Positions 15,934 to 30,440 of a DNA stretch of 64,000 nucleotides are shown in pieces. This DNA comes from Agromyces mariniharenae (lineage in GTDB: Bacteria > Actinomycetota > Actinomycetes > Actinomycetales > Microbacteriaceae). Under the pieces are notes generated by a model, which worked only from the letters and a program-made list of their open reading frames with translations, had not been told where the DNA came from and did no database searches. Made by a program: the position numbers and the translations under genes. Numbering within the stretch: the stretch's first letter is position 1; every line of letters begins with the position of its first letter. The stretch is taken from the NCBI RefSeq assembly GCF_008122505.1, contig NZ_VSSB01000001.1, forward strand, positions 914,891 to 978,890, in the 5' to 3' direction.

Positions 15934-18369
15934 TTACGGAGCGGTCACCGTCGTCGTGTTGAAGTTCTTGCCGCTCCCGTCGGGGCGGTAGTTCTTCTCG
16001 ACGTTCCCGGCGGAGTCCACCGAGAACCACTTGACCGTCGTGCCCGCCGGCACGGTGAGCACCTCGGCGCCCTCGCGGATGCCGGCGGTGCCGTACAGCG
16101 TCGACTCGTAGGTGGGCTTCGAGCCGTCGAGCGTGTAGAACACCGCTGCGGACTCGGAGACCTCGAACGTCAGGTCCACCATGCCGGCCTCGGCGCCCGC
16201 CGCGACCTCGACGGTGCTCGTCGGACGCTGCGAGTCGGTGTCGAAGTCGTGCGCCACGCGCATGAGCTCGATGAGCCCGTTGGCGAACTCCTGCGACTCG
16301 GCATGCGCCGATGCGCCCGTCGGGTCCTCGCTCTCGAAGGGCGGCTGGAACTGCGTGCCGACCTCGAAGTTCCACGCGTAGATCCCGTACTTGTACCAGA
16401 GCATGTCACCGGAGTTGCCGGCCGCCGAGTACAGCACGTCCGAGATCGGGCCCGTGCGCGCCGGCGTCACCGACATGCCGCGGTACCGCTTGATCTCCGT
16501 GAGGATCCGCGCCGAGGCGCCCCAGAAGTACGACTCCTCCTCGAGCGTAGGGCGCGGCGAGGAGCCGCGGTCCGGCGTCGTGTAGGCGCCGGGCGACCAC
16601 ATGAAGTAGTTGCCCGAGCTGTGCAGGTTCATCGCGAACCTGATGTTGGGGTTCGCACCCGCGATCCAGTCGATGTTCGCGCTCTCGGGCTCGCTCAGCT
16701 CCGCCGGGCCCGCGTACGTGCCGCTGGTGCACGACGAGGAGGCGCCGCTGTAGCCGTCGAACAGGCTGTAGGTGTCGTAGTTGCGGTTGTTGTCGACGCC
16801 CCAGCTCGTGCGGGCCAGGAAGTCGGCGCTCCCCGTGCGCTCGCAGTGGTTGGTCATGTTCTTGCGCTGCGACGCGAAGTCGTAGAACGAGTAGTGACCA
16901 CCGTCGGGGTTGACCGACGGGACGATCCAGATGTCGAGGTTGTTCACCAGCTGCTTCGTCGACGCGTCCTGCGCGTAGTTGCGCAGCAGGCGCTCCGCGG
17001 ACTCGATCGCGACGAGCGGCGGGACCCACTCGCGGGCGTGCTCCTGCGCGTAGGCCAGCACGCCGGGCTTCGAGCCGTCGCGGGTCTTGCCGATCCGGAT
17101 CGCGTACACGGGCTGCGGGTCCCGCGACACCGAGGCGGGTGCCGAGAGCCCGTCGGTGAGCGCGGCCGAGCCTGCTGCGACCACACCTGTGCCGGTGTTG
17201 CCGCGGTAGGTGTAGGCGACGACGAGGGCGGATGCCGCGGGCGAGGCGTTGATCGCCGCGACCACCTGGGCCGCGGTGCTCGTCACGGCGCCGGCGGCGT
17301 TCGTGGCGAGCGAGACCGCGATCGCCGATCCCGTGACGGAGACCGACAGCGGCGCGTTCGCGGTGCCGGGCGAGGTCAGCGCGACGGTGATGTCGTTCCC
17401 GCCCTCGTGGCCCCACGCCTTGGAGTCGATCGCGACACGGCTGGCATTCGCGCTGCCGAGCACGGCCTGCGCGTGCCGGCGGTAGCCGTTCGTCGGGTTC
17501 GGCAGCTCGACGATCTCGGAGATCTCGGGGAACTCCGCGGCCAGCGCCTTGACCCGGTCGTAGAGCTCGGTCGGCGTGAGGTACGACGTGATGAAGTCGG
17601 TCTGGTAGTTCGGGCCCCACGTCGTGTCGCCCTCGATGGGCAGCCAGTCGTTCACCTTGGCGGTGGCGACGTCGCCCGTCGGGCTCGTGATGCTGATGGT
17701 GTCGGGTCGGGTCGTGACCGTCGACGCACCGCGGTGGTACAGGTAGACGCCGGCGTCGACGAAGCGGCTGATGTTCTGCGTTCCGCCCGATCCGAGCTCG
17801 GTGCCGGGGCCGCTGTCGCGCTGGACCGTGAGCTGCGCGGAGTTGGTCTGGCCGTCGGCCCACTTCGCCTCGACCGACAGGTAGCCGACGCCGAACTGCG
17901 TGTAGTAGTCGGCGCGGATGATCTTGACGTCCGCGGCGTCGGCGGCGGCCGCCGCTGCGAACTGCTCGTTCTCCGCGACGGCGGCGGCGATCGTCGCGTC
18001 GCGTTCGGCGAGCACGGCCTCGGTGTCGTCCTCGTCGTGCAGGGTGCCGCCGACCGAGAAGCCGCGGGCGCGCAGCGCGTCGGCCTCGCCGTCGCTGATC
18101 ACGGCGTGGGCCGTGATCGTGCCGTCGGCGTTGAGGTGCGCGGCGTGGTCGAGGTCGACACCCGTGTCGACCAGGCGGTCGAGCTCGGTGTGGTCGGCCA
18201 GGTTCACCTCGACGACGCTGACCTCCTCGTCGGCGTCGCGCGTGAGCTCGGGCGGCGGCTCCGAGCCGGCGGCCGCTCCCATGGGCGTCAGCGTGGTGAG
18301 CGTGAGGCCGAGCAGTGCGGCGACGACCGCCGACCCCCCGATCGCCCTCTTCCTTCTCAACGTGTACAT
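15934..18369 (-). CDS. Secreted M14 zinc carboxypeptidase with inserted beta-domain
   Basis: An 811-residue exported metallopeptidase. A signal peptide (RRKRAIGGSAVVAALLGLTL, cleavage near AAAGS) is followed by a ~200-residue N-terminal region. The M14 catalytic domain has Zn ligands in AQEHAREWVPPL (HxxE) and in NLHSSGNY, and the catalytic Glu in WNFEVGTQFQ. An ~85-residue Thr/Ser/Ala-rich segment (NDITVALTSPGTANAPLSVS onward) interrupts the domain just before PQPVYAIRIGKT. The C-terminus is a chitobiase-like beta-sandwich (FYTLDGSKPTYESTLYG). The ATG at 18369 has GAGGAGGGA upstream. Likely role: trimming peptides outside the cell. Confidence 0.88.
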   Translation of the reverse strand: MYTLRRKRAIGGSAVVAALLGLTLTTLTPMGAAAGSEPPPELTRDADEEVSVVEVNLADHTELDRLVDTGVDLDHAAHLNADGTITAHAVISDGEADALRARGFSVGGTLHDEDDTEAVLAERDATIAAAVAENEQFAAAAAADAADVKIIRADYYTQFGVGYLSVEAKWADGQTNSAQLTVQRDSGPGTELGSGGTQNISRFVDAGVYLYHRGASTVTTRPDTISITSPTGDVATAKVNDWLPIEGDTTWGPNYQTDFITSYLTPTELYDRVKALAAEFPEISEIVELPNPTNGYRRHAQAVLGSANASRVAIDSKAWGHEGGNDITVALTSPGTANAPLSVSVTGSAIAVSLATNAAGAVTSTAAQVVAAINASPAASALVVAYTYRGNTGTGVVAAGSAALTDGLSAPASVSRDPQPVYAIRIGKTRDGSKPGVLAYAQEHAREWVPPLVAIESAERLLRNYAQDASTKQLVNNLDIWIVPSVNPDGGHYSFYDFASQRKNMTNHCERTGSADFLARTSWGVDNNRNYDTYSLFDGYSGASSSCTSGTYAGPAELSEPESANIDWIAGANPNIRFAMNLHSSGNYFMWSPGAYTTPDRGSSPRPTLEEESYFWGASARILTEIKRYRGMSVTPARTGPISDVLYSAAGNSGDMLWYKYGIYAWNFEVGTQFQPPFESEDPTGASAHAESQEFANGLIELMRVAHDFDTDSQRPTSTVEVAAGAEAGMVDLTFEVSESAAVFYTLDGSKPTYESTLYGTAGIREGAEVLTVPAGTTVKWFSVDSAGNVEKNYRPDGSGKNFNTTTVTAP

Positions 18370-23018: not shown

Positions 23019-23999
23019 ATGTGGGCCCGCCTGTACTTCGCCGCGCAGGCCCTCGCCGGCACCGTCTGGTGGATCGCCGTGTTCGCCGTTCCCGTCGTGC
23101 GCGAGGCGACCCTGGGAAGCCTCGACCCGGTGATCGTCGCGGCACTCGACATCCCGCTGTTCGTGGTGGCGTCCGCAGCGGCCGCGCTCGGGCTGCGCAT
23201 CGCCGCAGTGGTGACCACCGGGTGGACGATCCTCGTCACCGGTGCCATGGCGGTGTACGCCACCCTGACGACCGAGGCCGTCTGGGGAGCAGTCCTGATG
23301 GCGGCGGCGGCCGCCGGCTCGTCGGCGGCACTGTCGCTGATGCTGCTGGGACGGATTCCCACCGAATGGGTCGTCGCGCGCGGCCCGTTCGCCTTCCGAC
23401 CCGCCGCCGCCGGCGCCGGCGCGACCAGGCATGTGCTCGCCACGGCGGTGCAGATCCTGGTCTTCTGGGGCGTCTTCCTCGCGGCGATCCCGTTCACCCT
23501 GACCTTCGTCGAGGCACGCTGGGGCCTGGCGATCCCGTTCCCTCCCGTCGTGGCCCCGGTCGGATTGGTGCTGTTCCTGCTCGCGAGCGGTCTGGGGCTG
23601 TGGTCGGCCGCCACGATGTCGACGATCGGCCACGGCACCCCGCTGCCCGCGGCGATGCCCAACCGTCTCGTCATCGCGGGTCCGTACCGGTTCGTCCGCA
23701 ATCCGATGGCGATCGCGGGGATCACCCAGGGAGTCGCGGTCGGACTGATGCTCTCGTCATGGCTGGTGGTCGCGTACGCCATCGCCGGTTCCCTCGTGTG
23801 GAACTTCGCCGTCCGACCGCACGAGGAGGCCGACCTCGAGGCCCGATTCGGCGAGGCGTTCCGGCGGTACCGCAGCTCCGTTCGGTGCTGGTGGCCTCGA
23901 TTCGACGTCGGCGGCGCGGCATCCGCTCGGCCGACGATCAGCGCAGCGAGGCGGCCCGCCGCAGGTTCGGATCGGGATCGATCGCCCATCGCTCGATGA
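23019..23999 (+). CDS. Isoprenylcysteine methyltransferase-like membrane protein
   Basis: A 326-residue polytopic membrane protein. Eight or so hydrophobic segments occupy the first 260 residues. The C-terminal part has the ICMT/phospholipid methyltransferase signature: LVIAGPYRFVRNPMAIAGI followed by VRPHEEADLEARFGEAFRRYR, which bind S-adenosylmethionine in that family. The last ~35 residues are basic and low in pattern and overlap the convergent truncated alkD gene by 62 bp, suggesting read-through past an ancestral stop. TATGGT (23007-23012) six bases before the ATG suggests a leaderless start. Confidence 0.75.
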   Translation: MWARLYFAAQALAGTVWWIAVFAVPVVREATLGSLDPVIVAALDIPLFVVASAAAALGLRIAAVVTTGWTILVTGAMAVYATLTTEAVWGAVLMAAAAAGSSAALSLMLLGRIPTEWVVARGPFAFRPAAAGAGATRHVLATAVQILVFWGVFLAAIPFTLTFVEARWGLAIPFPPVVAPVGLVLFLLASGLGLWSAATMSTIGHGTPLPAAMPNRLVIAGPYRFVRNPMAIAGITQGVAVGLMLSSWLVVAYAIAGSLVWNFAVRPHEEADLEARFGEAFRRYRSSVRCWWPRFDVGGAASARPTISAARRPAAGSDRDRSPIAR

Positions 24000-24414
24000 T
24001 CCGCAGCGCTCGCGTCGCCTCTGCGCCCTCGAGCCGGTCGAGCAGCGGGCGCACGACGTCGGTGGCGATCGGGTCCACGAGCTCGCGGGCGCGGGCGTCG
24101 CGGAGGAACTGCTCGAGTCGCGTGAGGTCGCTGCCCCGCAGCATCCGCACGTGCCCCTGGAGCAGGACGATCGCGGCGAGCCGGCGCTCGTAGACCGGCT
24201 CGGCCCAGAGCTCCGCGGCGAGCGCGGTGACCTCGTCGTGCGTCATGTCCGGATGCCGCCGCCCCGCGTCGCGCACCGTGCCGCGGACCGCCCCGACCGA
24301 CGCGCCGTAGTGACGCAGCCCGCCGCCGATCCGCTCGGCGTCGGCCTCGGCCCGGAACTCGGAGCCCTCGGCCTGGAGCGTGCGATCGATGAACTCGGCG
24401 GCGGGAGAGGCCAC
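23938..24414 (-). CDS. C-terminally truncated AlkD-like DNA alkylation repair protein
   Basis: A 158-residue protein matching the first two thirds of AlkD-type HEAT-repeat DNA glycosylases, which usually have about 220-240 residues. Visible features are HYGASVGAVRGTVRDAGRRH, MTHDEVTALAAELWAEP and YERRLAAIVLLQGHVRML. It stops right after IIERWAIDPDPNLRRAASLR, where the last helices and key active-site residues of the family would follow. Its end overlaps the tail of the convergent methyltransferase gene. I read this as a 3' deletion; activity is doubtful. The next upstream gene stops four bases before its start. Confidence 0.6.
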   Translation of the reverse strand: MASPAAEFIDRTLQAEGSEFRAEADAERIGGGLRHYGASVGAVRGTVRDAGRRHPDMTHDEVTALAAELWAEPVYERRLAAIVLLQGHVRMLRGSDLTRLEQFLRDARARELVDPIATDVVRPLLDRLEGAEATRALRIIERWAIDPDPNLRRAASLR

Positions 24415-24417
24415 GGG

Positions 24418-25269
24418 TCAGTCGAACTCGGCGCGGGTGTCGCGCGGATACGCGCCGCCGGCGAGCTTCACGAGCCGGGCGTGGGCGTACTCGCAGACGA
24501 GCGCGTGCCGGTAGACCATCCGGGGCACGTCGACGTTCGAGTCCATCCAGAGGCTCATGCCCGCGAGCTTCCAGTGCCGGAAGGTGTCGTCGTCGGTCAC
24601 GAGGGCGAGGATCTCGAGGAACGAGTCGTCGAACCGGATCGAGTGCACGGCTCGGCGGTACTCCTCGACCGTGAGCGCCATCGAGAACGGGATGTTCATG
24701 AAGCAGAGGGCGGTCTGGATGTCGAGGCGGAGGTAGCGTCGGCGCCACCGCTCGGCGTCGAGCGGCGGGATGTCGAGCTGCGTGAAGTCGAGCGTCTCGG
24801 GCCGCGTCAGCGGCACCGCGTCGAGGGCGATGAGCACGTCGTAGACGTTGACGTCGTGCTCGACGACGGCCTGGTCGCCGAGCCCCGAGAGCGCCTCGGG
24901 TCGCAGCGTGACGGGCTCCATCGCGACGGGCGTGTTGCGGATGATGAAGTTGACGAGGTTGGTCTCCACGACGAAATGCCGGATGAGCAGCTCGACGGCG
25001 TCGGGCGAGACGAAGCGTCGCAGGAACCACACGCACAGCACGTCCATGGTGTGCAGCGGCATCCACCGGAACGGCAGCACGCGCTTGACGATCGAGATGA
25101 GCGCGACCAGGATGCGCGAGAACACGCGGGCGATCGGGTAGAGCCAGCGCCGCGAGAGCCGGCGCTGGTCGTCGATGATGAGGCGCACCAGCGCACGGTC
25201 GAGCGGCACGGAGGGGTCGGCGTACACCGCCTCCCACATGCTCGGGTCGGAGCGGACGAACTCCGCCAC
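24418..25269 (-). CDS. Uncharacterised protein of the ketosynthase cluster
   Basis: A 283-residue protein that I do not recognise with confidence. It begins with GTG one base after the stop of the di-iron protein gene, so it is translationally coupled to it and to the ketosynthase. Residues 40-75 (YPIARVFSRILVALISIVKR) are amphipathic to hydrophobic and could lie on the membrane; then comes RHFVVETNLVNFIIRNTP. The C-half is rich in conserved-looking Trp, His, Asp and Arg (FRHWKLAGMSLWMDSNVDVP). His and Glu residues in RHFVVETN and VEHDVNVYD could bind metal. From memory, similar proteins accompany StlD/DarB-like ketosynthases elsewhere. Function unknown; part of a lipid or acyl-ring pathway by context. 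Confidence 0.75.
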   Translation of the reverse strand: MAEFVRSDPSMWEAVYADPSVPLDRALVRLIIDDQRRLSRRWLYPIARVFSRILVALISIVKRVLPFRWMPLHTMDVLCVWFLRRFVSPDAVELLIRHFVVETNLVNFIIRNTPVAMEPVTLRPEALSGLGDQAVVEHDVNVYDVLIALDAVPLTRPETLDFTQLDIPPLDAERWRRRYLRLDIQTALCFMNIPFSMALTVEEYRRAVHSIRFDDSFLEILALVTDDDTFRHWKLAGMSLWMDSNVDVPRMVYRHALVCEYAHARLVKLAGGAYPRDTRAEFD

Positions 25270-25270
25270 G

Positions 25271-26005
25271 TCAGCGGTCCAGTTCCTCGAGCTGCAGCGC
25301 GTAGAGCCGGGCGACCACCTGCGCGCACCGCACGATCTCGTCGGCGGCCGCGTCGTCGATGATGCCCGACGTCAGGATCGCCTCGAGGTCGCCGGTGTGC
25401 GCGCCGTCCGCCTCCTGGTGGTACTGCATGAAGTGCACCTGGTTGTCGGCGAGCCCGAGCACCTCCTGGAATCGAGCGGCCCACCCCGCGGCGCGCTTCG
25501 CACCGAGCCCCTCGATGATGAACATCGCGCCGAGGAGCCCGACCGGGTTGGGCTGGTCCGCGTAGTGGAACATGTAGCCCGAGAGCGCCTCGGAGCCGAG
25601 GTTCTTGCGGCCGCTGCGCAGTTCGTCGAGCGAGCCGCCGATGGCGACGTAGTCGCGCTCGAGCATGAGGTAGTCGCGGTGCTCCTCCTCGGCGTGCTTG
25701 ATCGCCGCCGCCCGCAGCGTGAAGTGCTCGATGTCGAAGTTGGATGCCGCGCGCGAGATCCATGGCGACCCGTCGACGACCTGCTGGCGCAGGTTGAAGA
25801 GCAGTCGCTCGTAGTCGCGGATGGTCACCGTGCCGTCGGCGAGTCGCTGCAGGATCGGCACCTGGTCGAGACGCTCCTCGAGCTCGATCCACACCTCGGC
25901 GAGCCGGTCGGCGAGCGTGCCGGCGTCGGCGCCCGCGTCGGCGAGCGGCGCGGCGGAGCCGGAGGTCGTGGCGTCGGCGGTCGTGGTGGTCGTCGTGTCG
26001 GTCAT
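25271..26005 (-). CDS. Iron-containing redox enzyme, haem-oxygenase-like di-iron fold
   Basis: A 244-residue helical protein of the TenA/haem-oxygenase-like di-iron oxidase (HDO) class. Metal ligands are visible: HAEEEH at 104-109, Glu165 in FIIEGLG, and the H-x3-D-x2-H motif at His196, Asp200 and His203 (YHQEADGAHTGD). The first ~30 residues are a Thr/Ala/Asp-rich tail. Known HDO enzymes (e.g. UndA, SznF) use O2 to cleave or oxidise fatty acids or amines. It starts inside the ketosynthase stop (ATGA overlap, 26002-26005), so it very likely acts on the ketosynthase product or substrate. The reaction is not known. Confidence 0.85.
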   Translation of the reverse strand: MTDTTTTTTADATTSGSAAPLADAGADAGTLADRLAEVWIELEERLDQVPILQRLADGTVTIRDYERLLFNLRQQVVDGSPWISRAASNFDIEHFTLRAAAIKHAEEEHRDYLMLERDYVAIGGSLDELRSGRKNLGSEALSGYMFHYADQPNPVGLLGAMFIIEGLGAKRAAGWAARFQEVLGLADNQVHFMQYHQEADGAHTGDLEAILTSGIIDDAAADEIVRCAQVVARLYALQLEELDR

Positions 26006-27144
26006 GTCGATGCTCCTTGCTGATCGGGTGGGGCGACCACGGTGAGGTGGGCGAAGGCGAACGAGAACCGGCCGGATTCGGGCACGGCCAGCAGCACGGT
26101 CTCGCCGGGCGCGAATCGGCCCGAGCGCCACGCCTCCTCGAGGGCGATGAAGATGCTCGCCGACCCGGTGTTGCCGCGCGTCTCGAGGTTCGAGAACCAG
26201 CGGTCGGTGTCGAGCGTCGGGATGCGGCGGCGCAGCCCGTCGAAGGCGAGGTCGCGGAAGACGTTGGTGCTGTAGTGGCAGATCACGTGGTCGAGGTGCG
26301 AGACGTCGACCAGCCCGATGTCGACGAGCTCCTCGAACTGCTTCAGTCCAGCGTCGGCGAGCTCGTCGAGCATGCTCACGTCCTGCCGGATCACGAACAT
26401 GCCGGATGCCGCGGCGTCGGCGAGGTCGACGTCCTGCCACGTGCCACCGACGACGGGCGCGGGGCCGTCCATGCCGGCGCGCATGCACACGTCGTGCTCG
26501 TGGGCGAGCGAGACGTGGCGCACCCAGTCGAGTCGCAGCGACGGCCTGGCCGGATGCGGCTGGAACTCGACCACCACGGCCCCGGCGCCGTCGGAGAGCA
26601 TCCAGCGCAGGAAGTGCGAGTCCATGCCGGCGCGGATGCCGTCGAAGCGACGCTGCCGCAGGCTGCGGCTCGCCAGCTCCGAGCCGACGACCGCGGCGCG
26701 CGGGTGGTCGCCGAGCCTGATCTTGCTCGCCGCGGCATCCAGCGCGGCGAGGCTCGACGCGCACACGCCCGACGCGGTGAGCAGCTGCATCGGCCCGCCG
26801 CCGAGGCGCCCGTGCACCATCGACGCGAACCCGGGCACGAGCACGTCGCCCATGGTCGTCGCGCACGCCAGCATCCGCAGGTCGGATGCCGCGATCCCCC
26901 GATCGTCGAGCGCGGCGCGGAGCGCCTTGACGGCGAGCTCCTCGTTGAGCTCGGTGGGCTCGCCCTGCTCGTCGAGGGCGTAGTGCCGCTGCCGGATGCC
27001 GTTCGCCTGGAGCACGCGGCGGCGGATGCGCTCGGTGACCGCGTCGTCGCCGCCGAGCCGCGCCGCGATGCCGTCGTTGTCGACCGGATCACCCGGAAGA
27101 TACGAGCCGAAGCCCGTGAGGTAAGCGGTCGCCGTCGCACCCAT
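26002..27144 (-). CDS. Beta-ketoacyl synthase III, StlD/DarB-like
   Basis: A 380-residue thiolase-fold ketosynthase. The catalytic triad is intact: Cys128 in TASGVCASSLAALDAA, His in DHVICHYSTNVFRD, and Asn in ETRGNTGSASIFIALEEAWR. Length and the N-terminal GFGSYLPGDPVDNDGI pattern place it with KAS III relatives, closest in my judgement to the StlD/DarB ketosynthases that join two acyl chains into cyclohexanediones or dialkylresorcinols, and not housekeeping FabH. TAAGGT (27157-27152) lies seven bases before the ATG, so it has its own leaderless promoter. The downstream di-iron protein and the 283-residue protein are coupled to it. Confidence 0.85.
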   Translation of the reverse strand: MGATATAYLTGFGSYLPGDPVDNDGIAARLGGDDAVTERIRRRVLQANGIRQRHYALDEQGEPTELNEELAVKALRAALDDRGIAASDLRMLACATTMGDVLVPGFASMVHGRLGGGPMQLLTASGVCASSLAALDAAASKIRLGDHPRAAVVGSELASRSLRQRRFDGIRAGMDSHFLRWMLSDGAGAVVVEFQPHPARPSLRLDWVRHVSLAHEHDVCMRAGMDGPAPVVGGTWQDVDLADAAASGMFVIRQDVSMLDELADAGLKQFEELVDIGLVDVSHLDHVICHYSTNVFRDLAFDGLRRRIPTLDTDRWFSNLETRGNTGSASIFIALEEAWRSGRFAPGETVLLAVPESGRFSFAFAHLTVVAPPDQQGAST

Positions 27145-27233: not shown

Positions 27234-28583
27234 CTACGGCGTCCACCACGGTCGCAGCGGCAGGTCGCCCACGCCGCCGTGCTCGTCGGCGTTCACCGCG
27301 AGCACCTGGTGCAGCTGGATGCCGCCACGCTCGAACTGGAGCCGCGACCCGGCCATGTAGAGCCCCCACACCTTCGCCTTCTCGAGGCCGACCTCCTCGA
27401 CCGCCTCGTCCCAGTGCGCGACGAGGTTGGCGCACCAGTCCCGGAGGGTCAGCGCGTAGTGCGGGCGCAGGTTCTCCTCGTGCAGCACCTCCAGCCCGGC
27501 ATCCTGCGCCTCGGTGATGATGCGCCCCGAGCCGGTGAGCTCGCCGTCGGGGAACACGTAGCGGTCGATGAACCCGTGAGTCGACGGCTCGGTCCTGTTC
27601 TCGGGGCGCGTGATGCAGTGGTTGAGCAGCAGCCCGCCCGGCCGCAGCCGCGACCGCAGGAACCGGAAGTACTGCTTGTAGTTCCGCACGCCGATGTGCT
27701 CGAGCAGCCCGATCGACGACACCGCGTCGAAGCCCGACTCGCGGATGTCGCGGTAGTCGCCGAAGCGCGCCTCGGCCAGGTCGGCGAGCCCCTCCTCGAC
27801 GATCGCCCGCTGCGCCCACGTCGCCTGCTCCTCCGACAGGGTGACGCCGACCGCGCGGACGCCTCGACGGGCGGCGTACCGGACCATGCCGCCCCAGCCG
27901 CATCCGACGTCGAGCAGTCGGTCGCCCGGCGTCAGCCGAAGCTTCTCGAACACCAGGCGGTACTTGTTCTCCTGCGCCTCGTCGAGGGATGCCTCGGCGC
28001 GCGGGTAGCACGCGCAGGTGTAGGTCATCGACGGCCCGAGCACCCACTGGTAGAAGGTGTTCGACACGTCGTAGTGGTAGTGGATCACCTCGGCGTCGCG
28101 CGCCTTGCTGTGCCGGCGTCCGGTGCCGAGGCGCCGCCAGCGCGGCGGCACCTCCTGCGGCGGCGGTGCGATCGGGCGCAGGTGCTCGACGCCGACGGAC
28201 CGCACGATCCGGGCCATCGTCTTCGGCGGCGGCATCCGGAACACCAGCTCGTCGGCGAGCGCCTTGAGCAGCTCGTACGGATCGCCGGGGTGCACGCCGT
28301 GGATCTCGATGTCGCCGGCGATGTAGGCCCGGGCGAGGCCGAGGTCGCCGCGGGCGGTGGCGAGGTAGGTGGTGCCGCGGGGCGATGTGAGCTCGAGCCC
28401 GAAGGGGGCGTCCTCGGGACCGGCCGAGCTGCCGTCGTATGCGGTGAACCGCAGCGGCAGCCGACCCCTGGCGAGCAGCTCGAGGATCTCGGCCAGCGTG
28501 AGCTTGCCGTCGTCCGCGCGGGCCTCAGTGTCGGATGCCGCCGGCTCGGCCGTCTCGGGCGCCCGGTCCTTGAACGTCGTCAT
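27234..28583 (-). CDS. tmsB: Cyclopropane-fatty-acyl-phospholipid synthase-type methyltransferase (TmsB-like)
   Basis: A 449-residue S-adenosylmethionine-dependent methyltransferase acting on unsaturated acyl chains of phospholipids. The N-terminal domain (LPLRFTAYDGSSAGPEDAPF) and TYLATARGDLGLARAYIAGD are typical of CFA synthases; the SAM motif is RLLDVGCGWGGMVRYAARRG and the bicarbonate/active-site region has HYDVSNTFYQWVLG and CACYPRAEASLDEAQ. It overlaps by four bases (ATGA, 28580-28583) the upstream FAD oxidoreductase, the arrangement of tmsA-tmsB (bfaA-bfaB), which make 10-methyl branched fatty acids from oleate: TmsB forms the 10-methylene intermediate. The symbol rests on this pairing. 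Confidence 0.85.
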   Translation of the reverse strand: MTTFKDRAPETAEPAASDTEARADDGKLTLAEILELLARGRLPLRFTAYDGSSAGPEDAPFGLELTSPRGTTYLATARGDLGLARAYIAGDIEIHGVHPGDPYELLKALADELVFRMPPPKTMARIVRSVGVEHLRPIAPPPQEVPPRWRRLGTGRRHSKARDAEVIHYHYDVSNTFYQWVLGPSMTYTCACYPRAEASLDEAQENKYRLVFEKLRLTPGDRLLDVGCGWGGMVRYAARRGVRAVGVTLSEEQATWAQRAIVEEGLADLAEARFGDYRDIRESGFDAVSSIGLLEHIGVRNYKQYFRFLRSRLRPGGLLLNHCITRPENRTEPSTHGFIDRYVFPDGELTGSGRIITEAQDAGLEVLHEENLRPHYALTLRDWCANLVAHWDEAVEEVGLEKAKVWGLYMAGSRLQFERGGIQLHQVLAVNADEHGGVGDLPLRPWWTP

Positions 28584-29959
28584 CGTCGTTGCACCGCCTT
28601 CGCGTAGAGGTCGAGGAGTCGCCCGTCGGGGTCGTAGCGCCCCTTCACCCCGCGGTAGGCGTCGCCACCGTACCGCGCGTCGAACTCCTCGCGGGAGTAG
28701 TAGGCATCGGAGTAGAGCGACTTGTGGCCGTCGAGCTCATCGACCACCCGCTCGATGCGCCGGTTCGTCTCGCCTTCGGTCGCCCCGATCGGCACCGTCG
28801 ACCAGAAGCCGACGTTGACATAGGTCTCGCGCGGTCGCAGCGGGTAGAGCGTCCAACCGTCGTCGTCCCGCATGCGCACCGGGCAGAGCCAGATCGGCTC
28901 GATCGGCACGTTCGCCAGGAACCAGTCGAGGAACTCGACGGTCCGCCCGATCGGCACCTCGATGTCCTGGATCACCCATTCCCGCGGTGGGCGACGCTTG
29001 AGCCGCTCGAGCGCGTCGGCGATGCCGTACCGCCGCGCGATCCGCATCAGCTTCCAGTACGAGCGGCTGCGCCGGTATCGACGGGGCCAGAGCCGGCGAA
29101 CGAGCGGATGCTGCGCGCCGAACCCTTCCGAGCACCAGAACCAGTCGGTGTCCCACCGCCACAGGTAGTCGTGGATCGTCAGGCGGTCGTGGATCGCCCC
29201 GTCGTCGTGCTGGATGGAGCGGTAGAAGATCCGCTGCCGGGTGTAGTCGCTCACCGGGCCGGATGCCGCGGTCTGCGTGCCGAGGCAGAGGTAGCTCTCG
29301 TCGGCGCTGAACACGACGCCGTCGAGGTAGTCGACGCGAACGCCGTCGTGCGCTCCGGTCTCGACGATCCGATCCATCGTGGCTGCGAGCTCGTCGAGGG
29401 CGTGGAAGCGCAGGTGCGTGAGCGCCACGAAGGGCTGCACGGGTTCGAGCTCGATGCGCAGGCGCACCGCGTAGCCGAGCGTGCCGTAGGAGTTGGGGAA
29501 CGCGCGGAACAGGTCGGGATGCTCATCGGGCGACGTGGTGACGAGCTCGCCGGCCCCGGTGAGGATGTCGAGCTCGAGCACCGACTCATGCGGCATCCCG
29601 TTGCGGAACGAGGCGGACTCGATGCCGAGGCCGGTGACCGCACCCCCGAGCGTGATGGTCTTCAGCTGCGGCACGACGAGGGGCGTGAGCCCGTGCGGGA
29701 GCGTCGCGGCGACGAGGTCCTCGTAGGTGCACATGCCCGCGACATCGGCCGTGCGGGCCTCGGGGTCGACCGCGATGACGTGCGTCAGCCCCGAGGTGTC
29801 GAGCCCCGCGGCATCCGCCCGGACCCGCGGCCGGAACAGGTTGGACGTCGGCTTCGCGAGCCGAACCGCGGATGCCTCGGGCAGCGCCCGATAGCTTGCG
29901 AGGAGCCGCTCCACGCCGTCGGCGTGGGCGGAGCGTGCGTCGGTCTCGCGAACGGACAC
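28580..29959 (-). CDS. tmsA: FAD-binding oxidoreductase (TmsA-like, 10-methylene acyl reductase)
   Basis: A 459-residue flavoprotein of the vanillyl-alcohol-oxidase/DWARF1-like type. The FAD_binding_4 domain shows GMCTYEDLVAATLPHGLTPL, VPQLKTITLGGAVTGLGIES and SYGTLGYAVRLRIELEPV; the C-terminal cap has tryptophan-rich IWLCPVRMRDDDGWTLYPL and YVNVGFW. In the known tmsAB system this enzyme reduces the 10-methylene chain made by TmsB to a 10-methyl (tuberculostearic-type) chain. The GTG start at 29959 lies six bases after TACCGT (29971-29966), a leaderless promoter. It is the first gene of the pair. Confidence 0.85.
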   Translation of the reverse strand: MSVRETDARSAHADGVERLLASYRALPEASAVRLAKPTSNLFRPRVRADAAGLDTSGLTHVIAVDPEARTADVAGMCTYEDLVAATLPHGLTPLVVPQLKTITLGGAVTGLGIESASFRNGMPHESVLELDILTGAGELVTTSPDEHPDLFRAFPNSYGTLGYAVRLRIELEPVQPFVALTHLRFHALDELAATMDRIVETGAHDGVRVDYLDGVVFSADESYLCLGTQTAASGPVSDYTRQRIFYRSIQHDDGAIHDRLTIHDYLWRWDTDWFWCSEGFGAQHPLVRRLWPRRYRRSRSYWKLMRIARRYGIADALERLKRRPPREWVIQDIEVPIGRTVEFLDWFLANVPIEPIWLCPVRMRDDDGWTLYPLRPRETYVNVGFWSTVPIGATEGETNRRIERVVDELDGHKSLYSDAYYSREEFDARYGGDAYRGVKGRYDPDGRLLDLYAKAVQRR

Positions 29960-30005: not shown

Positions 30006-30440
30006 CTAGATGAATCCGTCGTAGTCGCGACGCACGACGCTCGAATGGATCCAGTCGATGAGCGTGATGTAGTCCCACACGGGCCGGCCTGTCGCGTCCT
30101 GGATCTGCTTGGCGTACGGCGGCATGTCGCTGCACTCGAGCAGCAGGGCGCCGATCTCGGGATGGTCGGTCACCAACCGCACGGCCGTGCCGACCACCTC
30201 GCCCCGCACCTGGTCGAGGTCCATCCAACCCTGGTCTTCGAGGATCGCGCCGCGGAACCCGGGGCTGTGTTCCATGCCGGCCACGACGATCGGCGCGTCC
30301 TCGCGGATGCCCACCCCTGTCAGCATGCGCTGGTCGAGACTGCTCTGCTTCGCGCAGAGGATGCCCAGCCGCTGTCGGGGCTGCAGCGCGCCCAGCAGCA
30401 TCGGAACCTGGCACAGGCTCGACAGGAATACCTCGCGGGA
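30006..30440 (-). pseudogene. 5'-truncated aspartate/glutamate racemase-family remnant
   Basis: The open frame encodes the C-terminal half of an Asp/Glu racemase-family protein (usual length about 210-230 residues): FLSSLCQVPMLLGALQPRQR, LGILCAKQSSLDQRML, ALLLECSDMPPYAKQIQ with the second catalytic Cys, and DYITLIDWIHSSVVRR. Upstream, the frame is closed by TGA at 30443-30441 right before SREVFLSSL; the N-terminal half with the first catalytic Cys is missing. An ATG at 30401 would give 131 residues, but that would be only half a domain. Probably inactive. Confidence 0.7.

What the first reader, a model, noticed from the sequence alone, without database searches (positions are those of the whole stretch)
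24418..27144. Coupled ketosynthase, di-iron oxidase and unknown protein: candidate undescribed acyl-modifying pathway
Three genes overlap or abut (ATGA at 26002-26005; one base at 25270). The ketosynthase has an intact Cys-His-Asn triad and resembles StlD/DarB enzymes that condense two acyl units into cyclic diketones or dialkylresorcinols. The second gene encodes a haem-oxygenase-like di-iron protein with visible ligands (HAEEEH, Glu165, H-x3-D-x2-H), a class that oxidises or cleaves fatty acids and amines. The third is unrecognised and has possible metal ligands and a membrane-surface helix. No acyl carrier, cyclase or aromatase is present. The set lies next to fatty-acid methylation genes, so its substrate may be branched acyl chains. 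The reaction order (condense, then oxidise) is inference.
Basis: partly seen in the sequence, partly recalled or inferred. Interest (0 to 1): 0.78.

Follow-up and report, generated by a model that had tools for sequence, protein, structure and literature searches.

The report
Widespread uncharacterised three-gene oxidative lipid cassette
Three neighbouring bacterial genes of unknown joint purpose recur as one unit in very different bacteria and probably join two fatty chains and then oxidise the product, so they point to an unknown class of bacterial lipid or aromatic molecule.

Summary
Window 24418-27144 (- strand) encodes a ketosynthase (KS) of the StlD/DarB superfamily, a haem-oxygenase-like di-iron oxidase (HDO) and a DUF6999 protein. 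The order is conserved far beyond this strain. In 80 named genome loci fetched with the HDO alone, a KS lies just upstream in 80 of 80. DUF6999 follows in 77; in the other three the contig ends first. KS and HDO share one reading frame in 13 of 81 loci across five phyla, and KS-HDO fusions also occur in Bacteroidota. Conversely, all 11 DUF6999 loci found in 299 Microbacteriaceae genomes had KS and HDO beside them. Flanking genes vary, so this is a stand-alone cassette; the fatty-acid-methylation neighbours are not conserved. The KS is not FabH (the genome has its own) and lacks the OleA/PpyS glutamate. DUF6999 has a confident predicted fold with no significant PDB match. Best reading: the KS joins a beta-ketoacyl and an enoyl thioester into a cyclohexanedione, and the HDO oxidises it (perhaps aromatising it, in place of DarA) before DUF6999 acts at the membrane. 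Product and chemistry are inferred. No paper on the cassette was found in the searches made.

The parts
26002..27144 (-). Ketosynthase of the StlD/DarB superfamily, 380 aa; triad C128, H290, N325 (codons near 26761, 26275, 26170)
25271..26005 (-). Haem-oxygenase-like di-iron oxidase (PF14518), 244 aa; probable 3His/3carboxylate site H104, E108, E165, H196, D200, H203
24418..25269 (-). DUF6999 protein (PF22523), 283 aa; helical, amphipathic helix 38-64; invariant H98, N112, D139, D183, D214, H255, E260
26002..26005 (-). ATGA overlap of KS stop and HDO start; the same 4-base overlap in 49 of the 64 loci where both genes were called separately
27234..28583 (-). Neighbour, not part of the conserved cassette: CMAS-type fatty acid methyltransferase
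   Evidence: PF02353 322 bits; no hit beside the cassette in 81 other loci
28580..29959 (-). Neighbour, not part of the conserved cassette: FAD-binding oxidoreductase, overlapping the CMAS gene
   Evidence: PF01565 45 bits; partial hits in 1 of 81 other loci
23938..24414 (-). Neighbour, not part of the conserved cassette: DNA alkylation repair-like protein, 3 bases after DUF6999; homologue in the flanks of 4 of 81 other loci
   Evidence: PF08713 53.6 bits

Best explanation
The three genes form a stand-alone biosynthetic cassette. SHOWN by computation: one conserved unit, KS and HDO in one reading frame in several lineages, KS of StlD/DarB type, HDO with a full 3His/3carboxylate site, and a third protein with a confident predicted helical fold. 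INFERRED: the KS takes a beta-ketoacyl thioester and an alpha,beta-unsaturated acyl thioester from the host's own fatty acid metabolism (hence no dedicated ACP) and condenses and cyclises them to a 2,5-dialkyl-cyclohexane-1,3-dione or its carboxylate. The product passes directly to the HDO, which uses O2 to oxidise it. The most likely oxidation is an UndA-like oxidative decarboxylation or desaturation that aromatises the ring, the step DarA performs in dialkylresorcinol clusters. DUF6999, lying on the membrane surface with an invariant His/Asp/Glu set, then modifies or places the lipid product. My split: one pathway 0.97; CHD-type condensation 0.7; HDO acting on the KS product 0.75; aromatisation specifically 0.35. 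The single figure below is for CHD-type condensation followed by HDO oxidation of that product.
For: Order KS-HDO-DUF6999: KS in 80 of 80 HDO-selected loci, DUF6999 in 77 of 80, the other three ending at the contig edge, plus a Pseudoalteromonas plasmid fetched by DUF6999. Reverse test: 11 of 11 DUF6999 loci in Microbacteriaceae have the HDO and at least the part of the KS that the short locus covers. KS and HDO in one frame in 13 of 81 loci; 120 of 120 listed hits to a fusion query are 589-662 aa and include Chitinophaga, Pedobacter and Maribacter. KS with StlD not FabH/OleA in the tree (100/99); the OleA-type Glu, 26 residues before the Cys in 6 of 6 OleA-type proteins, is absent in 49 of 49; the fused relative's model matches StlD at TM 0.89 by StlD's length. 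StlD/DarB chemistry: text of PMC4578411. DarB as cyclase and DarA as aromatase: table passage of PMC3949708. UndA as an HDO fatty acid decarboxylase, and the 3H/3C set: passages of PMC13108848. Acyl-related neighbours.
Against: The window KS scores below the curated StlD/DarB cut-off (324.5 against 450), so its chemistry could have diverged. No product is known. No neighbour shared widely across phyla identifies the substrates. HDOs also do N-oxygenation and rearrangements, so the type of oxidation is open; one locus (L069) has a flavin amine-oxidase-type gene directly after the cassette. DUF6999 has no known relative, and I could not measure distances in the model, so whether its invariant residues form one site is untested. 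In many Bacteroidota fusions the HDO's last ligand motif has two extra residues, which could mean different chemistry there.
Confidence: 0.55

Rival explanations
1. The KS acts like a FabH/elongation enzyme making a beta-ketoacyl chain, and the HDO hydroxylates, desaturates or shortens it to give an unusual fatty acid that is placed in membrane lipids by an acyltransferase.
For: A large gene lies beside the cassette in 5 of 81 loci; the two of these five that were scanned are MFS-acyltransferase-AMP-ligase proteins. A fatty acid desaturase lies inside the Corallococcus version. DUF6999 has an amphipathic helix.
Against: The KS carries StlD/DarB motifs (D100, FLRWMLSDGAG, PES), not FabH ones, and groups with StlD; the genome has its own FabH.
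Confidence: 0.2
2. OleA/PpyS-like head-to-head Claisen condensation of two acyl chains to a beta-keto acid, which the HDO decarboxylates oxidatively to a long alkene or ketone.
For: HDOs include the fatty acid decarboxylase UndA (PMC13108848 passages).
Against: The glutamate base of OleA/PpyS is absent: Val 36, Ile 5, Leu 5, Ala 2, Met 1 at column 103 of 49 HDO-linked KS, and no Glu 19-30 residues before the Cys in any; Glu in 6 of 6 OleA-type proteins. The tree separates them.
Confidence: 0.1
3. The HDO acts on nitrogen: the KS joins an acyl chain to an amino-group-bearing partner and the HDO N-oxygenates or rearranges it to a heterocycle.
For: Many characterised HDOs act on amines and amino acids (PMC13108848 passages and search listing). 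The second solved HDO by profile after 3dde is the mangotoxin enzyme MboA, at E 0.35, not significant. One locus, L069, has a flavin amine-oxidase-type gene (PF01593) directly after DUF6999.
Against: Among 28 neighbouring proteins scanned with Pfam (3, 3, 1, 10, 10, 1) none is a recognised amino-acid-activating or amino-transferring enzyme, apart from the AMP-ligases of L061 and L082, whose acyltransferase partner suggests fatty acids.
Confidence: 0.07

Closest known systems
Dialkylresorcinol clusters (DarA/DarB/DarC) and the stilbene ketosynthase StlD
   Same: Same KS superfamily, triad and motifs; a fused relative is modelled with StlD's fold; short gene set drawing on fatty-acid-derived substrates.
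   Different: HDO and DUF6999 where a DarA aromatase would be expected; no ACP adjacent; KS scores below the family cut-off and falls in an HDO-linked group.
HDO superfamily (UndA, BesC, SznF, CADD, MboA)
   Same: 3His/3carboxylate ligand pattern ending in H-x3-D-x2-H; PF14518 match.
   Different: No close solved relative (3dde, unknown function, E 1.5e-10 by profile); fused or coupled to a ketosynthase, a word that occurs 0 times in the main text of the 2026 HDO review.
OleA / photopyrone synthase PpyS
   Same: Thiolase-fold KS joining two acyl chains.
   Different: Lacks the catalytic Glu.
FabH
   Same: Thiolase fold, Cys-His-Asn triad.
   Different: 99-101 bits against a cut-off of 249; a separate FabH (369 bits) exists in the genome.
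Pfam DUF6999 (PF22523)
   Same: Full-length member, 319 bits.
   Different: Pfam calls its function unknown; 0 papers in the held library mention DUF6999.

Membership tests
StlD/DarB beta-ketosynthase (NF005293) | Score at or above the curated cut-off of 450 bits | tested here: not met
   324.5 bits; 322.8 by genome search
StlD/DarB beta-ketosynthase (NF005293) | Cys-His-Asn triad and family motifs | tested here: met
   C128, H290, N325 in 49 of 49; D100, S184-D185-G186, E356 also 49 of 49 and shared with StlD and three Bacteroidales proteins
StlD/DarB beta-ketosynthase (NF005293) | Groups with StlD rather than FabH/OleA in a tree | tested here: met
   100/99 support; the OleA/FabH rows were partial sequences on long branches
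StlD/DarB beta-ketosynthase (NF005293) | Forms cyclohexane-1,3-diones | not testable with these tools
   needs enzymology
Dialkylresorcinol (dar) cluster | DarA aromatase next to DarB | not tested
   No DarA model matched in any scan and I had no verified DarA sequence to search with
Dialkylresorcinol (dar) cluster | ACP (darC) in the cluster | tested here: not met
   The three cassette genes and three flanking genes contain no ACP match; genes further off were not scanned for one
OleA/PpyS head-to-head ketosynthase | Catalytic Glu preceding the active Cys | tested here: not met
   0 of 49 against 6 of 6 in OleA-type proteins
FabH | Curated cut-off (NF006829, 249 bits) | tested here: not met
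   100.9 bits
HDO superfamily (PF14518) | Pfam cut-off | tested here: met
   38.9 against 28.9
HDO superfamily (PF14518) | 3H/3C or 3H/4C ligand set | tested here: met
   Six residues invariant in 19 of 19, equivalents invariant in 11 of 11 and 18 of 18 fusions; geometry not measured
HDO superfamily (PF14518) | Binds a di-metal cofactor and activates O2 | not testable with these tools
   needs spectroscopy
DUF6999 (PF22523) | Pfam cut-off | tested here: met
   319.3 against 27
DUF6999 (PF22523) | Shared fold with any solved family | tested here: inconclusive

The most novel reading that the evidence does not exclude
A so far undescribed class of bacterial lipid-derived aromatic or oxidised cyclic molecules is made by a minimal, self-contained KS/di-iron-oxidase/DUF6999 cassette present in at least five phyla, with KS-HDO fusions in Bacteroidota as well. 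The KS-HDO fusion is a one-protein 'condense, cyclise and oxidise' enzyme, and DUF6999 is a new enzyme fold, possibly a second metal enzyme, acting at the membrane.
Probability: 0.35. Interest if true: 0.87.

Novelty: new variant of a known kind. Interest (0 to 1): 0.73.

Why it matters
A gene set this strictly conserved across distant phyla, yet sitting in different surroundings, normally marks a useful product, and none is known here. It would give DUF6999 a role, add ketosynthase coupling to the known reactions of HDO enzymes, and offer a compact catalyst for oxidised cyclic lipids. A member occurs in Caulobacter, a tractable genetic model, so the question can be tested directly.

Tried and rejected
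DUF6999 as a relative of the HDO: profile comparison gave probability 0.6%; several HDO-fold proteins (PolF, BesC, TenA) appear in its Foldseek list but with E of 1 or worse and TM about 0.13, so I count them as noise. No fold for DUF6999 in BFVD either (best E 0.59). Weak Pfam hits of some DUF6999 members (Chordopox_L2 in 9 of 69, best E 0.028) are taken as composition noise.

Shared neighbours as a clue to substrate: in my gene calls no family other than the trio is in more than 16 of 81 loci, and ten such families occur in more than one phylum, the widest in 11 loci, at scattered positions; they were not identified. One search was swamped by shadow reading frames and is used only as a first look; rests on my own simple gene caller.

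The idea that a Streptomyces plasmid KS (L094, L109) pairs with DarA, which would be a natural HDO-for-DarA swap: the next gene resembles my recollection of DarA, but no Pfam or NCBIfam model matched it and its only plasmid relatives are itself and two other Streptomyces copies. Not used as evidence. Whether those KSs nest inside the HDO-linked group is unsettled: the first tree put them inside with modest support, while a test did not reject the HDO-linked KSs as one clade without them (p-AU 0.54).

One search selects HDOs with particular peptide patterns and kept 80 of 108 confirmed stretches, so the 80 are not a random sample. The 5684 proteins counted may include ones that match only one half; only the 120 listed were looked at. 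The tree flags long branches and ten rows of unusual composition.

Literature: ten searches. Those aimed at a KS-HDO pair listed no paper on one: four unrelated titles, none in the others; DUF6999 found none. Only open-licence papers are held. Of PMC4578411 I read parts 1 and 2 of 3; of PMC13108848, PMC3949708 and PMC9606717 only found passages; the StlD structure paper was not seen.
Full report
WHAT IS THERE. The KS stop and HDO start share ATGA, and one base separates the HDO from the third gene. Pfam gives ACP_syn_III domains, Haem_oxygenas_2 and DUF6999 (PF22523, 319 bits) in that order. So the 'unrecognised' gene belongs to a named but uncharacterised family. Upstream are a CMAS-type methyltransferase and an FAD oxidoreductase, downstream a DNA-alkylation-repair-like gene, all on the same strand. 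The window lies in a 4.08 Mb genome; by its nearest relatives (HDO 90% and KS 92% identical to Agromyces ramosus) it is an Agromyces or close to it.

IS THE LINK REAL. I fetched loci from a collection of one genome per species using an alignment of HDOs only: 108 candidate stretches were confirmed, 80 kept. Every one of the 80 has a KS of this type just upstream on the same strand. DUF6999 follows in 77; in the other three (L042, L066, L068) the contig ends 2, 576 and 536 bases after the HDO. In the Corallococcus locus L067 a desaturase gene lies between HDO and DUF6999. A Pseudoalteromonas plasmid found through DUF6999 has the same order with HDO 45% and KS 42% identical. In 13 of these 81 loci KS and HDO lie in one uninterrupted frame, 12 of them of 609-710 codons stop to stop; the thirteenth (L065) is 1634 codons and its true start was not determined. 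Where the two genes were called separately, 49 of 64 pairs overlap by four bases. In reverse, a DUF6999 search of 299 Microbacteriaceae genomes found 11 with the gene, and all 11 (this genome included) have the HDO and a KS beside it, the KS only as far as the short loci reach. A wider draw of 296 genomes of the phylum found 3, all of this genus. The cassette is therefore patchy in distribution and strict in content.

HOW WIDE. The named loci cover Actinomycetota (Agromyces, Microbacterium, Demequina, Cellulomonas, Glycomyces, Trebonia and others), Alpha- and Gammaproteobacteria, Myxococcota (Corallococcus), Bacillota (Cohnella) and Fidelibacterota. A protein search with a fusion as query lists 120 hits of 589-662 aa; among those with a name are Chitinophaga, Pedobacter, Maribacter and Niastella. 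Their genomic surroundings were not seen. DUF6999 homologues number 1040 and 798 at E <= 0.001 in two searches, of which 120 each were listed.

WHAT THE PARTS ARE. KS: the catalytic Cys, His and Asn are present in 49 of 49 HDO-linked sequences; the OleA/PpyS glutamate is missing in 49 of 49, while 6 of 6 OleA-type proteins have it 26 residues before the Cys (the role of that glutamate is from PMC4578411). The tree separates StlD, three Bacteroidales DarB-like proteins and the HDO-linked KSs from FabH and OleA types with 100/99 support (the outgroup rows are partial and branches long). The 49 HDO-linked KSs group at 91/100 together with two Streptomyces plasmid KSs, and the data do not reject them as one clade without the latter. 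The genome has its own FabH (369 bits) elsewhere. A model of the Glycomyces fusion (mean pLDDT 89.3, pTM 0.65) gives a KS domain matching StlD at TM 0.89 by StlD's length. HDO: six residues fit the 3His/3carboxylate rule described in PMC13108848 and are invariant. DUF6999: predicted with pLDDT 87.7 and pTM 0.86 as a helical protein without a significant match in the PDB or BFVD. H98, N112, D139, D183, D214, H255 and E260 are invariant in 69 of 69 sequences and H138 is kept in 68 of 69. A 19-residue stretch reaches hydropathy 1.6 in 63 of 69, around residues 38-60 in some and near 183-195 in others, so a membrane-inserted helix is also possible.

NEIGHBOURS. In my gene calls no family other than the trio occurs in more than 16 of 81 loci; ten such families cross phyla, the widest in 11 loci, at scattered positions, and were not identified. 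Some clades carry telling partners. One large gene family lies directly beside the cassette in four Sphingomonadales loci and one Rhodospirillaceae locus; the two members scanned are fusions of an MFS transporter, an acyltransferase and an AMP-binding ligase, like LplT-Aas. A fatty acid desaturase lies between fusion and DUF6999 in Corallococcus, a P450 directly before the Fidelibacterota fusion, and a regulator family next to or near the cassette in seven alphaproteobacterial loci (the one scanned is TetR). These point to fatty-acyl chemistry. Others do not: a flavin amine-oxidase-type gene follows the cassette in L069, a TauD dioxygenase and a weak ceramidase-like match lie near it in L082, and six of the 20 proteins scanned matched nothing. 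The CMAS and FAD genes of this window are not shared: no CMAS hit, and FAD hits in one of 81 loci. That one is Agromyces ramosus, where a 50-residue FAD piece lies just before the KS, perhaps a remnant of the same arrangement.

HOW IT PROBABLY WORKS. StlD/DarB enzymes join a beta-ketoacyl and an alpha,beta-unsaturated acyl thioester to a 2,5-dialkylcyclohexane-1,3-dione (PMC4578411), and DarA is annotated as the aromatase of dialkylresorcinol clusters (PMC3949708). Here no DarA was recognised and an O2-using di-iron oxidase sits in the same operon or the same polypeptide. The simplest reading is that the HDO oxidises the KS product as it is released. UndA, an HDO, decarboxylates fatty acids oxidatively (PMC13108848); the same chemistry on a ring carboxylate would aromatise it. 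This last step is my inference and is not shown. DUF6999 may finish or place the product at the membrane.

VERDICT. I call it a new variant of a known kind because the KS chemistry has a close precedent, while its HDO coupling and the DUF6999 partner have none that I found in the searches listed. Function remains unproven.

Noticed in passing
L094:5706-13113 (Streptomyces sp. NBC_00008 plasmid), L109: Plasmid-borne cluster ACP - StlD/DarB-like KS - unknown - FAD monooxygenase - SCP2 - FabF - P450 - ACP; the KS falls with the HDO-linked ones in the first tree but no HDO is annotated. Looks like an unstudied natural-product cluster.
   Followed up: partly
L095:5406-7131, L096:5352-7122, L108:906-2631: Bacteroidales plasmids carry a lone StlD/DarB-like KS directly after a TetR/HTH regulator gene, with nothing annotated as DarA beside it: odd cargo for a plasmid.
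   Followed up: no
L071: Record titled Bacillus sp. 2B10 has a cassette KS 73-79% identical to those of Sphingomonadales; probably a mislabelled or contaminated assembly, so it is not counted as Bacillota.
   Followed up: partly
L061:9523-12918, L082:3377-6805: MFS-acyltransferase-AMP-ligase proteins (LplT-Aas-like) directly beside the cassette, after it in Sphingomonas and before it in Rhodospirillaceae.
   Followed up: partly
L067:4802-8504: Fatty acid desaturase (PF00487) inserted between the KS-HDO fusion and DUF6999 in Corallococcus; a cupin/JmjC-like gene precedes the fusion.
   Followed up: partly
A10 alignment, Bacteroidota fusions (P0252, P0298 and others): The HDO motif H-x3-D-x2-H has two extra residues before the last His in many Bacteroidota fusions, a possible change in the metal site.
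   Followed up: no
window 30006-30401 (-): Reading frame of 131 aa matches only the second half (119-245 of 246) of family PRK07475, so it may be a truncated or interrupted gene.
   Followed up: no
L005:6617-6766 and 16187-16717 (Agromyces ramosus): Two separate partial hits to the window's FAD gene, 84-86% identical, one just before the KS: possibly remnants of a rearranged tms-like pair.
   Followed up: no
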